This document shows positions 4,685 through 8,163 of a stretch of 33,300 nucleotides of DNA, in pieces. The translations under genes were made by a program, and so were the position numbers. The stretch is from assembly GCA_035945995.1 (NCBI GenBank), contig DASYZR010000073.1, positions 1 to 33,300 on the forward strand, in the 5' to 3' direction. Below the pieces are notes generated by a model that did no database searches, was not told the origin of the DNA, and saw nothing but the letters and a program-made list of their open reading frames with translations. Positions within the stretch are counted from its first letter, which is position 1. Each line of letters opens with the position of its first letter. The DNA is from a bacterium. GTDB taxonomy: Bacteria > Sysuimicrobiota > Sysuimicrobiia > Sysuimicrobiales > Segetimicrobiaceae.

Positions 4685-5338
4685 ATGGCTGATATGGCGT
4701 CCGTGCACGGCTTTCTCTACTTCCGGGTCCCGGCGGGGCATCGCTCGCCCGCCGTGGCGGCGCGCGTATCCGAGGCCGCGGGGACCGCGGCCGGCGCGCC
4801 CGGAGTCGCCGGCCTCTACGCGTACGACCTCGCGGGGCTGCGCGGCGACGCCGACCTGGGTTTTTGGGTCGCCGCGGAGGGCCCGGAGGCGTTCCAGCGC
4901 GCGGCGACGGCGTTGGCCCGCGCCGACCTCGACCTGACGTGGTCGCTGTGGGGCTTCGTCCGGCCCTCGCAGTACACGGGGCGCGACGGCACGAGCGTGC
5001 GTGTGCCCGGTGAGCGGCGCCGGTTTCTCGTCGTCTACCCGTTCGGCAAGACGCACGACTGGTACCAACTGCCGGCGGACGACCGGCGGGCGATGATGAC
5101 CGAGCACGCGCGGCTCGGACATCGCTTCGAGGACATCGAGCAACTGCTGCTCTATTGCACGGGCCTCGCGGACTGGGAGTTCGTCGTCGGCTACGAAACC
5201 GACGACCTCGCGCGGTTCTCCGAGCTCGTCACGGCCCTGCGCAGCACGGCGGCCCGGCCGTACACGCTGCGCGATACGCCGACGTTCGTCGGGCGGTACG
5301 GGCAGATCGAGGACATCGTTCGCGCGGTGATCGGGTAA
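4685..5338 (+). CDS. Chlorite dismutase family heme protein, HemQ-like (coproheme decarboxylase candidate)
   Basis: 217 residues, a usual length for the Cld/HemQ family. The C-terminal ferredoxin-like half has the family signatures YPFGKTHDWYQLP (118-130), MMTEHARLG (137-145), TGLADWEFVVGYETDDL (159-175) and YTLRDTPTFVG (193-203). By family comparison His141 is the expected proximal heme ligand. Where true chlorite dismutases carry a distal Arg, the best-aligned residue here is Gln153, as in monoderm HemQ, so coproheme decarboxylation in the coproporphyrin-dependent heme pathway is likelier than chlorite detoxification. That alignment requires a one-residue gap. The N-terminal half (FLYFRVPAGHR) is the weakly conserved, probably heme-free domain. 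ATG 4685 has GAGGAG upstream, and a second Met at codon 4 is possible. No other heme-biosynthesis gene is nearby; two DinB-like genes follow. Confidence 0.85.
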   Translation: MADMASVHGFLYFRVPAGHRSPAVAARVSEAAGTAAGAPGVAGLYAYDLAGLRGDADLGFWVAAEGPEAFQRAATALARADLDLTWSLWGFVRPSQYTGRDGTSVRVPGERRRFLVVYPFGKTHDWYQLPADDRRAMMTEHARLGHRFEDIEQLLLYCTGLADWEFVVGYETDDLARFSELVTALRSTAARPYTLRDTPTFVGRYGQIEDIVRAVIG

Positions 5339-5347
5339 AACGGCCCA

Positions 5348-5365
5348 TCCGCACCTCCGTGCGGA
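5348..5365 (+). terminator. Perfect hairpin between the HemQ-like gene and the first DinB-like gene
   Basis: TCCGCAC-CTCC-GTGCGGA gives a 7-bp GC-rich stem with a four-base loop, starting 10 bases after the stop codon at 5338. A short TTTT occurs only 10 bases downstream (5375-5378), so it is not a textbook intrinsic terminator. It could cause partial termination or mark the mRNA end between the two genes. Confidence 0.45.
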
Positions 5366-5394
5366 CGCCGACTCGTTTTCGTGAGGGTGGCGTG

Positions 5395-5934
5395 ATGGAT
5401 TACGCGCGCGTCTATGATGTATTGACCCAGGCCCGCGGGCGCCTTTTCGGGTGGCTTCGTCCGTTGAACCAGGAACAGTACACGCAGCAGTTTCCGTTCG
5501 GGATGGGCACGCTCCGCGCGACGCTCATCGAGACCGCCAGGGTCGAGCTGCTCTACGGCATGCGGCTGCGGGGGGAACCCGTGCCGCCGCCTCCCCTTTC
5601 CGACACCTTCCCGATCAGCGAAACCCGGCAACCGACGTTCGCGGATCTCGAGCAGGCCTGGACCGCCCAGGCGCCGCAGACCCGCGCGACCCTCGCCCGT
5701 ACCACCGATTGGGCCACGACGCTGACCCGCCGGATCGAGCAGGGCGACAAAGTCGTGATCACGACCGCGAGCAAAGCCGAGATCGCCGTGCAGATGCTGA
5801 TGCACGAGGTGCATCACCGTGCCCAGGTGATGGCCATGCTGCGGCAGCTGGGCGTCGAAGCCCAGAACCTCGACTACATCGGGTTCGTGGCGCGGCGGGA
5901 GGAGTATCCGAAAGACAGGGCGCCGCGCGCCTAG
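5395..5934 (+). CDS. DinB-like four-helix-bundle protein (first of a tandem pair)
   Basis: 179 residues. It begins MDYARVYDVLTQARGRLFGWL and carries the DinB/YfiT-type last-helix motif MHEVHHRAQVMAMLRQLG (residues 136-153) with His137, His140 and His141. DinB-superfamily proteins usually bind a divalent metal through three histidines, one of them in helix 2. Here the corresponding helix (LRATLIETARVELLYGMRL) has no histidine, so the metal site is altered or absent. ATG 5395 is preceded by GAGGGTGG; a GTG three bases upstream is an alternative. It is paralogous to the next gene. Family roles include thiol-dependent transferases such as bacillithiol and mycothiol S-transferases, but none can be assigned here. 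Confidence 0.8.
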   Translation: MDYARVYDVLTQARGRLFGWLRPLNQEQYTQQFPFGMGTLRATLIETARVELLYGMRLRGEPVPPPPLSDTFPISETRQPTFADLEQAWTAQAPQTRATLARTTDWATTLTRRIEQGDKVVITTASKAEIAVQMLMHEVHHRAQVMAMLRQLGVEAQNLDYIGFVARREEYPKDRAPRA

Positions 5935-5957
5935 CCCCGTCGCACCGAGACGCCGCC

Positions 5958-6518
5958 GTGACCGCGCATCCGATCGACCCGGCCCGCGTCTACGACGTGC
6001 AGACGCAGGCCCGCCGGCGGCTGTTCGACTGGATCCGCCCGCTCACGCAGGCGCAGTACACCCGGCCGTTCCCGTTCGGCCTCGCCACGCTGCGCGCGAC
6101 GCTAATCGAAATCCCGTTCACCGAATTGTATCTGGCCATGCGGCTACGCGAAGAAGTCCTCCCGCCGTTTTCGGACTGGCCCATCGGCGAGCACCGCCAG
6201 CCCACGTTTGCCGATCTCGAGGCCGTCTGGGAGCCACAGATGCGCGAGACGCGGGCGACCCTGGCGCGAACCACCGATTGGGACCGCGAGGTGACCTCCG
6301 AGATCCGCTGGCCGGACCGGGTCGTCGCCGTGACGGCGACCAAGGCCGACATCGCCACGCAACTGCTGCTCCACGAGGTGCACCACCGTGCGCAGGCGAT
6401 GGCGATCCTCCGGCTGCTCGGCGTACCGGCGCAGGACCTCGATTACATCGGGTTTGTGCAGCGGCGGAGTGTACGGACAGACGATCGCGCCCCGGAGAGT
6501 TCCGGGGATCTGCGATAA
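5958..6518 (+). CDS. DinB-like four-helix-bundle protein (second of a tandem pair)
   Basis: 186 residues from GTG 5958, 23 bases after the previous stop. It matches the preceding protein throughout: ARVYDVQTQARRRLFDWIRPL, FPFGLATLRATLIE, RQPTFADLE, RATLARTTDW and HEVHHRAQAMAILRLLGV (residues 139-156). This is clearly a local duplication. As in its sister, the helix that should provide the first metal histidine lacks one (LRATLIEIPFTELYLAMRL). The chosen start places the conserved ARVYDV segment near residue 10, as in the sister gene. No activity can be assigned. It is probably co-transcribed with 5395-5934, and the accessory island starts directly after it. Confidence 0.78.
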   Translation: MTAHPIDPARVYDVQTQARRRLFDWIRPLTQAQYTRPFPFGLATLRATLIEIPFTELYLAMRLREEVLPPFSDWPIGEHRQPTFADLEAVWEPQMRETRATLARTTDWDREVTSEIRWPDRVVAVTATKADIATQLLLHEVHHRAQAMAILRLLGVPAQDLDYIGFVQRRSVRTDDRAPESSGDLR

Positions 6519-6537
6519 CAGCGAGGAAAATTCGGGC

Positions 6538-6969
6538 TCAGTTGTCGAGCGGGTTGATCACTCGAAGGCCTTGGAATCGGACAAAATCCTTGTCGGTGGT
6601 GGCCAGCTCCGCGCCGTGCTCGAGCGCCAATGCGGCAAGGTGGGCGTCCATGACCAGCGGTCCACGCGCAAGGGTCTCCGTCGAGAGCTTGCTGAAAATC
6701 TGCCAGTGACGTTCGCCCGGCTGCAGGATGATCGCATTTGGACGGGCTATCCATGACGAGACGAGCGGCACTGCTTCCTCGGGAAGGAAGGGATGCTCGA
6801 ACACACGTGGATTCGTACTCAGACGGAGAAACGCGAGAATGGTCGTCCATGCAAGACCGATCGGCTCCGGCCGGATGAACGTCCGCTCCAACCAGGAGCG
6901 CGCCTTCTCGTGGTGCCGATCCGAGGCGTTGTATGCATACAACAGAACGTTGGCGTCGAGCAGAATCAC
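6538..6969 (-). CDS. PIN-domain toxin of a VapBC-type toxin-antitoxin pair
   Basis: 143 residues, the size of VapC ribonuclease toxins. It has the N-terminal acidic PIN motif MILLDANVLLYAY (Asp5), a middle TTILAFLRLSTNPRVF segment, VMDAHLAALALEHGA with the second acidic cluster, and the C-terminal TTDKDFVRF motif. This combination (xxLRLxTNPRVF plus DAHLAALALEHGA) is typical of the TIGR00028-type PIN subfamily, in which the second canonical Glu of other VapCs is replaced by a hydrophobic or aromatic residue. The start is GTG 6969, which overlaps the stop of the antitoxin gene by four bases (GTGA), indicating translational coupling. VapC toxins cleave tRNA or rRNA; the target here is unknown. 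Codon use is less GC-biased than in neighbouring metabolic genes, suggesting transfer. Confidence 0.88.
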   Translation of the reverse strand: MILLDANVLLYAYNASDRHHEKARSWLERTFIRPEPIGLAWTTILAFLRLSTNPRVFEHPFLPEEAVPLVSSWIARPNAIILQPGERHWQIFSKLSTETLARGPLVMDAHLAALALEHGAELATTDKDFVRFQGLRVINPLDN

Positions 6970-7211
6970 CGGTGGAGGGGTCCTTCGACATGCTCGACAA
7001 GCTCGCTGATCTTATCGTAATTCAATCCGGGTCGAGAACCCATCTCACGTGGATGGACCTTGAAGGGTCCGAGAACGTTTCGCTCGCGCCTTCGGAGCAG
7101 CCCGAGGCGCAAAAGGCTGTTGACGACCTCCTTGAATGAACGCCCTGAACGTCGGACCTCCGCCCTCAGATCAGCCGCAACATCGTCCTCAAGTGTTATC
7201 GTTGTTCGCAC
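6966..7211 (-). CDS. Antitoxin of the VapBC-type pair (ribbon-helix-helix)
   Basis: 81 residues from a GTG start at 7211. The N-terminus MRTTITLEDDVAADLRAEVRRSG is the beta strand and first helix of a MetJ/Arc-type ribbon-helix-helix DNA-binding domain. SFKEVVNSLLRLGL forms the second helix. The C-terminal part (roughly residues 45-81, PFKVHPREMGSRPGLNYDKI...) is the expected toxin-wrapping tail. It lies directly upstream of the PIN toxin, with a four-base overlap. There is no Shine-Dalgarno site: the inferred -10 box ends about six bases before the GTG, so the message may be leaderless. Two 10-base palindromes in the promoter probably serve as its own operator. Confidence 0.85.
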   Translation of the reverse strand: MRTTITLEDDVAADLRAEVRRSGRSFKEVVNSLLRLGLLRRRERNVLGPFKVHPREMGSRPGLNYDKISELVEHVEGPLHR

Positions 7212-7247
7212 ATCACGATGCTACAATCGTGGGCATCATGATGTCAA
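7211..7247 (-). promoter_or_regulatory. vapBC promoter with two palindromic operator sites
   Basis: On the minus strand TTGACA (7242-7247) is separated by 18 bases from TAGCAT (7218-7223). Transcription would start at or next to the antitoxin GTG at 7211. CATCATGATG (7234-7243) is a perfect 10-base palindrome touching the -35 box, and CATCACGATG (7211-7220) is a near-copy overlapping the -10 box. Their centres are 23 bases apart, about two helical turns. This fits autorepression by a ribbon-helix-helix antitoxin. Promoter and operator roles are inferred from sequence only. Confidence 0.55.
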
Positions 7248-7265
7248 TATGTCCGTCTCGTCATC

Positions 7266-7293
7266 TTGCGTTTGCCCGTTCATATAGTAAGAT
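7266..7293 (+). promoter_or_regulatory. Candidate promoter of the RHH-DUF5678/protease unit
   Basis: TTGCGT (7266-7271), a 16-base spacer and TAAGAT (7288-7293) resemble a sigma-70-type promoter in a locally AT-rich stretch (about 7240-7320). It lies 33 bases before the ATG at 7327, which has its own GGAG site. Neither box is a perfect match, so this is a tentative call. It is back-to-back with the vapBC promoter. Confidence 0.3.
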
Positions 7294-7326
7294 GTGATTG
7301 TTAGCATATTAACGGTTGGAGCCCTC

Positions 7327-7725
7327 ATGAAAAAGCCGCTCGATAACGCCACACTCTATCTACGCGACATCCCCAAAGACCTGGTCCGAAACTTGAAAGC
7401 GCAGGCCGCGCTCCGCGGCACAACCCTGACCGCGTTCGTGATCGACATCCTGTCGGAGGCGGCCGGTGAGGACACCCTCGCCGCGCTGAAGCCGATCGAG
7501 GCCGACATGGCCTGGTACGATGCGCACAAGGCCGCGCTGTTGCGGCGCTACCGCGGCAAACATATCGCGGTCTTGAACAAGAAGGTCGTCGACCAGGACG
7601 AGAACTTTGGCGCTTTAGCGCAACGTGTCTACGCAAAGTTTGGTGTGCGCCCGATCTTCATGCCCCTATGCGAGGACCCGGAACCCGTCATGCACTTCTA
7701 CTCGCCGCAAGTTGTCGAAGGCTGA
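7327..7725 (+). CDS. Ribbon-helix-helix plus DUF5678 domain protein
   Basis: 132 residues from ATG 7327, chosen because GGAG lies 7 bases upstream and the RHH motif then starts near the N-terminus. An in-frame ATG at 7294 lacks this. Residues 8-45 (TLYLRDIPKDLVRNLKAQAA...TLTAFVIDILSEA) read as an antitoxin-like ribbon-helix-helix domain. Residues 63-123 fit DUF5678, with the recognisable core YRGKHIAVLNKKVVDQ and the later KFGVRPIFMPLCEDPE. The stop overlaps the start of the aspartic protease gene by one base (TGATG), so the two are translationally coupled. The role is unknown. By layout it resembles an antitoxin or adaptor gene placed before its effector, but no such function has been shown for it here. 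Its codon use is slightly less GC-rich than the flanking operons. Confidence 0.8.
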   Translation: MKKPLDNATLYLRDIPKDLVRNLKAQAALRGTTLTAFVIDILSEAAGEDTLAALKPIEADMAWYDAHKAALLRRYRGKHIAVLNKKVVDQDENFGALAQRVYAKFGVRPIFMPLCEDPEPVMHFYSPQVVEG

Positions 7726-8105
7726 TGCCCGAGTACCGATATGGACCTACGTTCCGGCCGCCGGCGCCCATGCTACCGATCGGCGTCAGCGGCCCAGGAG
7801 CGACCGCCGCCATGCTGGTTCCGGCGTTGGTGGACACCGGCGCCGGGATGACGGCACTTCCCTCGGACGTGCCCAGACAATTGGGTTTGCCCGTAGCCGG
7901 CCGCACGATCGTCTCCGGCTTCGATGGTCAGGCGAGAATTGTGCCCACGTACACCGTTCAGATACGCGTGGCGGAGTATACTACGGTGCTCAAGGTCATC
8001 GGCCTCGGCGCGGTCGCGCTCCTTGGGCGGGACGTCCTCAACACGCTCTTCATCAGGCTGAGAGGCCCGGAGGGGATTCTCGAAGTCGACGAGCCGCCAC
8101 CGTAA
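7725..8105 (+). CDS. Retropepsin-like clan AA aspartic protease
   Basis: 126 residues, the size of a single-lobe, obligately dimeric retropepsin-like protease. The catalytic motif ALVDTGAGMTALP sits at residues 34-46 with Asp37. The second family hallmark, a hydrophobic pair followed by Gly (ALLGRDVLN, residues 98-106), resembles the IIGRN motif of retroviral proteases. The segment between them, GFDGQARIVPTYTVQIRV, fits the flap and strand region. There is no signal peptide or membrane segment, so it is predicted cytoplasmic. It starts at ATG 7725, sharing one base with the upstream stop. An upstream in-frame ATG at 7668 is unlikely because it lies within the previous gene. The substrate is unknown; the obvious candidate partner is the coupled RHH-DUF5678 protein. 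Confidence 0.83.
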   Translation: MPEYRYGPTFRPPAPMLPIGVSGPGATAAMLVPALVDTGAGMTALPSDVPRQLGLPVAGRTIVSGFDGQARIVPTYTVQIRVAEYTTVLKVIGLGAVALLGRDVLNTLFIRLRGPEGILEVDEPPP

Positions 8106-8113
8106 GTCCGTCT

Positions 8114-8131
8114 CCTGCGCCACCGCGCAGG
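8114..8131 (+). terminator. Perfect hairpin after the aspartic protease gene
   Basis: CCTGCGC-CACC-GCGCAGG forms a 7-bp stem with a four-base loop starting nine bases after the stop codon at 8105. There is no T-tract. Its place at the end of the two-gene unit and before hyuA suggests it ends or protects that message. Confidence 0.5.
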
Positions 8132-8163
8132 CACACGGCCCGGCGGCGACGAACAGCTCGATA

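What the first reader, a model, noticed from the sequence alone, without database searches (positions are those of the whole stretch)
7327..8105. Coupled RHH-DUF5678 / retropepsin-like protease pair: possible protease-based two-gene module
Seen: two small genes share one base (TGATG). The first combines an antitoxin-like ribbon-helix-helix (residues 8-45) with a DUF5678 domain. The second is a 126-residue single-lobe aspartic protease with DTGA (Asp37) and ALLGRD motifs. The unit has its own AT-rich promoter region, ends in a hairpin and lies back-to-back with VapBC in a lower-GC stretch. Known: RHH domains are typical antitoxin modules; retropepsin-like enzymes act as dimers; DUF5678 has no assigned function that I know of. 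Inference: the RHH-DUF5678 protein may be the DNA-binding partner, regulator or substrate of the protease, giving a toxin-antitoxin-like or stress-processing system. This is the best candidate here for an undescribed system.
Basis: partly seen in the sequence, partly recalled or inferred. Interest (0 to 1): 0.65.

Follow-up and report, generated by a model that had tools for sequence, protein, structure and literature searches.

The report
Repressor-coupled HIV-protease-like two-gene module
Two overlapping small genes, one for a DNA-binding protein carrying an uncharacterised domain (DUF5678) and one for a small protease of the HIV-protease fold, form a conserved unit found in many bacterial lineages; it is built like a toxin-antitoxin pair, although no experiment has yet shown what it does.

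Summary
Gene 1 (7327-7725) is a FitA-like ribbon-helix-helix plus DUF5678; gene 2 (7725-8105) is a retropepsin-like protease with Asp37. In this order (CSP1-3 lineage), all 18 genomes with RHH-DUF5678 have the protease directly downstream; so do a Gemmatimonadetes and a Deltaproteobacteria MAG. DUF5678 without the RHH is followed directly by a retropepsin gene in 19 of 29 resolvable loci from other bacteria. In the converse search, all 30 top protease hits have DUF5678 upstream. The RHH genes carry a dedicated operator of GTTAGC half-sites; its palindromic form occurs six times in 43 genomes, always at this operon. In the window, module plus VapBC form one 1.67-kb segment absent from a same-genus genome. 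Related cyanobacterial retropepsins pair with another small gene, matching the untested PADLOC defence candidate PDC-M52. Best reading: an autoregulated, toxin-antitoxin-like module in which the DUF5678 protein binds and restrains the protease. Pairing is shown, autoregulation strongly supported, binding and toxicity inferred. No held paper links DUF5678 to a protease, and DUF5678 has no solved structural relative.

The parts
7327..7725 (+). Gene 1: 132-aa RHH-DUF5678 protein, proposed partner and autorepressor
   Evidence: conserved in 18 order genomes
7348..7464 (+). FitA-like ribbon-helix-helix, residues 8-46
   Evidence: PF22513, 29.4 bits against cut-off 27; family profile matches antitoxin chains 9kkd and 7e4j in the PDB
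7537..7629 (+). DUF5678 match, residues 71-101; the predicted domain spans about residues 55-116 with a less confident C-terminal tail
   Evidence: PF18929, 27.4 bits against cut-off 23.2; AlphaFold2 model pLDDT 91
7725..8105 (+). Gene 2: 126-aa retropepsin-like protease
   Evidence: PF13975, PF13650 above cut-off; family profile matches HIV protease and Ddi1; fold search on a relative
7833..7844 (+). Active-site motif DTGA (Asp37)
   Evidence: D, G and A invariant in 17 aligned relatives
8016..8033 (+). ALLGRD motif, residues 98-103
   Evidence: G101 and R102 invariant in A2
7299..7314 (.). Operator-like site TGTTAGCATATTAACG in the promoter region of gene 1
   Evidence: TGTTAGCATRYTAAC with up to 1 mismatch occurs once in the own genome; half-sites recur upstream of relatives
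8114..8131 (+). Hairpin after gene 2, not terminator-like
6538..6969 (-). VapC (PIN ribonuclease toxin), divergent neighbour within the same accessory segment
   Evidence: TIGR00028, E 2.7e-42
6966..7211 (-). VapB-like RHH gene, divergent neighbour
   Evidence: RHH_1 and VAPB_antitox matches below cut-off; position next to VapC
6469..8140 (.). 1.67-kb accessory segment holding VapBC and the module
   Evidence: Same-genus genome G002 joins window 6468 to 8141 directly; G001 lacks it too

Best explanation
A self-regulating two-gene module that works like a type II toxin-antitoxin pair. Gene 1 makes a small protein whose DUF5678 domain binds the protease made by gene 2 and controls it, most likely holding it inactive. 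Its RHH domain, a dimer by family knowledge, binds GTTAGC half-sites over the promoter and represses the operon. Gene 2 makes a retropepsin-like subunit that must dimerise to cut. When the gene 1 protein is depleted or displaced, the freed protease would cleave cellular or phage proteins. Shown: conserved adjacency and gene overlap, purifying selection on both genes, retained catalytic Asp, a dedicated operator, an accessory segment, and an alternative small partner in related cyanobacterial modules. Inferred: direct binding, inhibition rather than activation, and toxicity.
For: Adjacency: 18 of 18 order genomes, two further RHH-DUF5678 MAGs and L040, 18 of 28 resolvable other loci; converse 30 of 30 top protease hits. 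Selection: dN/dS 0.08-0.39. Operator. Accessory and patchy: absent from same-genus genomes, travels with VapBC. Asymmetric decay: DUF5678 intact beside protease deletion remnants in L028 and L084. Partner exchange and toxin-antitoxin-rich plasmid setting in cyanobacteria. RHH of the antitoxin type.
Against: No toxicity or binding data exist. Fusion model gave no confident docking. Seven of 29 RHH-less DUF5678 loci have no protease next door, so DUF5678 can act without it. The decay asymmetry is partly a sampling effect, because those loci were fetched with DUF5678 as query. Some related retropepsins have no small partner (L118, L119). The window protease has Gly41 where aligned relatives have Asp, so this copy may be impaired.
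Confidence: 0.45

Rival explanations
1. A regulated processing enzyme, not a toxin. The DUF5678 protein is an activator, adaptor or chaperone that presents substrates to the protease, and the RHH only sets the dose, in the manner of the RimB or RloA systems.
For: Characterised bacterial retropepsins act in regulation, and the RimB paper notes that A2 proteases often need other protein factors (PMC11957791; RloA, PMC12239564). Conserved pairing fits an obligate cofactor equally well.
Against: Patchy presence, including absence from same-genus genomes, the joint accessory segment with VapBC and a dedicated autoregulatory operator are more typical of toxin-antitoxin units than of housekeeping processing.
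Confidence: 0.3
2. The gene 1 protein is the substrate: the protease cuts the RHH-DUF5678 repressor and so switches its own operon on, in a LexA-like loop.
For: Same operon, small DNA-binding protein next to a protease; the C-terminal tail has a conserved Pro and an S/T-P-R pattern.
Against: DUF5678 mostly lacks any RHH outside this lineage but keeps the protease, and the RHH-DUF5678 linker varies greatly in length, about 60 extra residues in L018, so a fixed cut site there is unlikely.
Confidence: 0.12
3. A dedicated phage-defence module with the protease as effector, a sister arrangement to PADLOC candidate PDC-M52.
For: Cyanobacterial pairs of small protein and retropepsin match PDC-M52A (E 1e-43) and PDC-M52B (2e-47); 13 of 18 aligned DUF5678-partner and related proteases match PDC-M52B at E<=0.1, best 2e-9. 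PDCs come from guilt-by-embedding and are mostly unvalidated (PMC12988326).
Against: DUF5678 matches no PADLOC partner component; no defence gene other than VapBC was identified beside the window module; no held paper mentions PDC-M52 or PDC-M08.
Confidence: 0.1

Closest known systems
PADLOC candidate PDC-M52 (A and B), cyanobacterial plasmids
   Same: Small upstream gene overlapping a retropepsin-like gene; the proteases are homologous
   Different: PDC-M52A is a different small protein, not DUF5678 and without RHH; untested candidate
Type II toxin-antitoxin modules with RHH antitoxins (FitAB, VapBC)
   Same: RHH-bearing first gene, enzyme second, gene overlap, autoregulatory palindromes, accessory distribution
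   Different: The second gene is a retropepsin-like protease, not a PIN nuclease; toxicity and neutralisation are untested
RimB of the rimABK operon and RloA proteases of Pseudomonas (PMC11957791, PMC12239564)
   Same: Bacterial retropepsin-like proteases working with operon partners
   Different: Partners are RimA/RimK or RloB/RloC, not DUF5678; RloA proteins are secreted
Rickettsia APRc (RC1339, PMC4140852)
   Same: Bacterial retropepsin of solved structure, among the best fold matches of the modelled relative (5c9f)
   Different: No DUF5678 pairing is reported in the abstract seen; full text not read
HIV-1 protease and eukaryotic Ddi1
   Same: Single-lobe aspartic protease fold with DTG and GR motifs
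   Different: Viral polyprotein or ubiquitin-related settings, no bacterial partner gene

Membership tests
Retropepsin-like aspartic protease (clan AA, A2-type) | Profile score above curated cut-off | tested here: met
   PF13975 33.9 bits (cut-off 28.2), PF13650 26.0 (24.3); TIGR03698 and TIGR02281 below cut-off
Retropepsin-like aspartic protease (clan AA, A2-type) | Single lobe with catalytic D-T/S-G motif and fold | tested here: met
   D37 invariant; fold search of modelled relative gives HIV protease, APRc, Ddi1
Retropepsin-like aspartic protease (clan AA, A2-type) | Homodimer with proteolytic activity | not testable with these tools
   Needs purified protein
DUF5678 (PF18929) | Profile score above gathering cut-off | tested here: met
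   27.4 bits against 23.2
FitA-like RHH (PF22513) | Profile score above gathering cut-off | tested here: met
   29.4 bits against 27
Type II toxin-antitoxin system | Two small co-directional overlapping genes, conserved as a pair | tested here: met
Type II toxin-antitoxin system | Autoregulation through operator repeats at the promoter | tested here: inconclusive
   Comparative evidence strong; no binding data
Type II toxin-antitoxin system | Second gene toxic alone, first gene protein binds and neutralises it | not testable with these tools
   Fusion model inconclusive, pTM 0.52
PDC-M52 defence candidate | Small partner matches PDC-M52A | tested here: not met
   P0001 has no PADLOC match; DUF5678 set has none to PDC-M52A
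PDC-M52 defence candidate | Protease matches PDC-M52B | tested here: inconclusive
   P0002 E 0.018 only; other DUF5678 partners down to 2e-9

The most novel reading that the evidence does not exclude
A broad, undescribed class of toxin-antitoxin or abortive-infection modules whose effector is an HIV-protease-like dimer held in check by a DUF5678 protein, with partner exchange (DUF5678, RHH-DUF5678, PDC-M52A type) as in classical toxin-antitoxin families.
Probability: 0.35. Interest if true: 0.85.

Novelty: new variant of a known kind. Interest (0 to 1): 0.62.

Why it matters
DUF5678 has no assigned role, and the single held paper that contains its name is an unrelated plant-pathogen study. A conserved bond to a retropepsin gives the domain a first testable function as protease partner, and gives small bacterial retropepsins a candidate control protein. 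If the pair behaves as toxin and antitoxin, retropepsin-type proteolysis would join the known toxin activities, and it would suggest what the related PADLOC candidate PDC-M52 does.

Tried and rejected
Complex prediction: only single-chain jobs were possible, so I folded a relative (L026) whose two genes lie in one frame, reading the stop as Gly. Both halves are confident but pTM is 0.52, so no docking is claimed. Fold of DUF5678: no PDB match better than E 0.7. PDB sequence search with protein 2 alone found nothing relevant; the family profile did. Viral contigs: no relative of protein 1. Plasmids: no relative of P0002 or of the L045 protease. VapBC beside the module is not general: of 34 loci scanned, only L075 showed a VapC, and it is a different one. 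Natural DUF5678-protease fusions: none noticed apart from the L075 deletion remnant. Terminator hairpin: not significant. Similarity of the cyanobacterial small partner to antitoxin families (PF09720, TIGR02574, VapB15) is below cut-off and not used. In-frame TGA flagged in some hyuA relatives: in the three relatives where it could be placed it is the stop near the C-terminus.

Full report
What is there. Gene 1 (7327-7725) encodes 132 aa with a FitA-like RHH (8-46) and DUF5678 (71-101), both above Pfam's cut-offs. Gene 2 (7725-8105) encodes a 126-aa retropepsin-like protease, above cut-off for two aspartic-protease families. They overlap by one base. Upstream and divergent lies VapBC: VapC is secure (TIGR00028, E 3e-42), while the VapB-like RHH gene rests on position and below-cut-off matches. 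The hairpin after gene 2 is not significant and has no T-tract.

Is the pairing real? DUF5678 occurs once in the own genome. Of the 43 genomes of the order, 18 have it, and each has a retropepsin-like gene directly downstream on the same strand, mostly overlapping or abutting; L021 has DCG in place of DTG/DSG. Named relatives in the GTDB scan are CSP1-3/Armatimonadetes and ANGP1 MAGs. A Gemmatimonadetes (L037) and a Deltaproteobacteria (L039) MAG have the same RHH-DUF5678 plus protease, and an Ignavibacteriae MAG (L040) has DUF5678 without RHH plus protease. The RHH of L037 and L039 is below Pfam's cut-off and is taken from alignment with the others.

With L040, 30 RHH-less DUF5678 loci from other bacteria were examined. 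One (L055) ends at a contig edge. Of the other 29, 19 have a clear retropepsin gene directly downstream, 2 have deletion remnants of one (L028, L084), 1 has a divergent one with DCG (L049), and 7 have none (L041, L043, L044, L047, L054, L056, L085). Eight of the positives (L077-L083 and L086) were not used to build the protease profile that detects them, so they are an independent check. Retropepsin-like genes are rare: the own genome has three hits at E<=1e-8 in 4.1 Mb, so the chance that a given neighbour is one is roughly 0.1 percent (my estimate, assuming about 4,000 genes).

Converse test. The protease subfamily profile (A2) in 61 genomes finds the same 18 order genomes plus G018, where an internal deletion has joined a piece of DUF5678 to a piece of the protease without the Asp. 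Fisher's exact test for co-occurrence gives p 3e-11, but adjacent genes and related genomes are not independent. A broader protease profile (A4) over 340 genomes gives 30 hits at E<=1e-20. All have DUF5678 directly upstream; four of these (L099, L101, L112, L115) were not among the Pfam-based hits and were confirmed with my own DUF5678 profile at E 2e-5 or better. A4 was built from DUF5678 partners, so this shows that the clade is coherent, not that every bacterial retropepsin has the partner. Weaker hits often lack it (L118, L119, L123, own-genome L002 and L003).

Selection and catalysis. Close pairs give dN/dS of 0.08 to 0.39 for both genes. The catalytic Asp and the following Gly are invariant in the aligned relatives. 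The fold search on the modelled relative L026 gives HIV protease, Rickettsia APRc and Ddi1. The window copy has Gly41 where all other rows of A2 have Asp; this is the position of HIV-protease Asp29 (family knowledge), so this copy may be impaired. Distances of the two proteins correlate over 13 pairs (r 0.80, none of 2000 permutations as high), which shows joint inheritance and does not by itself prove contact.

Regulation. Upstream of 18 RHH-DUF5678 genes there are 36 GTTAGC-type half-sites in the last 80 nt, against 2.1 (sd 1.5) in dinucleotide-preserving shuffles, mostly 8-10 bp apart. The half-site set was read off these same regions, so that excess is partly by construction. The specificity test is stronger: TGTTAKCATGCTAACA with up to one mismatch occurs at six places in 43 genomes, each upstream of an RHH-DUF5678 gene, with no hit for the reversed control pattern. 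The window version, TGTTAGCATATTAAC at 7299-7313, is the only such match in its genome. TGTTAGCAT also resembles an extended -10 element, so repression by promoter occlusion is the natural reading (inference).

Accessory nature. In the same-genus genome G002 the DinB-like gene (window 6468) joins directly to the hyuA side (8141); G001 lacks the segment too. Window 6469-8140, holding VapBC and the module, is thus a single 1.67-kb difference with 60 percent GC against 70. The direction, gain or loss, is not proved; composition favours gain.

Partner exchange. Retropepsins in G089 (L117) and G169 (L121) are preceded by a different small gene. Relatives sit on cyanobacterial plasmids (Nostoc, Rippkaea, Pseudanabaena), overlapping an upstream gene of 72-86 codons; on the Rippkaea plasmid the pair lies near HicAB and ParA. 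These pairs match PADLOC PDC-M52A and PDC-M52B. PDCs are unpublished or putative candidates from guilt-by-embedding, mostly unvalidated (PMC12988326, PMC11811056). DUF5678 matches no PADLOC partner model, so the present module is a sister arrangement and not a member.

Mechanism. I commit to an autoregulated, toxin-antitoxin-like module with a protease effector, at 0.45. Conserved pairing is shown and autoregulation strongly supported; binding, inhibition and toxicity are inferred. The main rival is a regulated processing protease with an adaptor (0.3). A multimer model and simple expression tests would separate them.

Novelty. No held paper links DUF5678 to a protease and none was found on retropepsins as toxins, within an open-access library only. 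DUF5678 has no solved relative by sequence or by fold. Because pairs of a small protein and a retropepsin already exist as untested candidates in PADLOC, I rate it a new variant of a known kind.

Noticed in passing
window 7845-7847 (residue 41 of gene 2): Gly where every other aligned order relative has Asp (DTGAG against DTGAD/DSGAD); possible loss of function in this copy.
   Followed up: partly
L021, L049: Retropepsin partners with DCG in place of DTG/DSG at the active site, beside an intact DUF5678.
   Followed up: no
L075 (G018): In-frame deletion remnant joining part of DUF5678 to the C-terminal half of the protease, directly after a different VapC-type gene.
   Followed up: partly
window 5155-6518: Two tandem DinB-like paralogues upstream of VapBC; G001 appears to lack the second.
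   Followed up: partly
L133 (Rippkaea orientalis plasmid pP880101): PDC-M52-type small gene plus retropepsin near HicAB, ParA and IS elements on a 50.9-kb plasmid.
   Followed up: yes
L050: Two DUF5678-like stretches (829-984 and 1462-1650) before one retropepsin gene.
   Followed up: no
L118, L119: Related retropepsins (G071, G218) without any recognisable small partner upstream.
   Followed up: no
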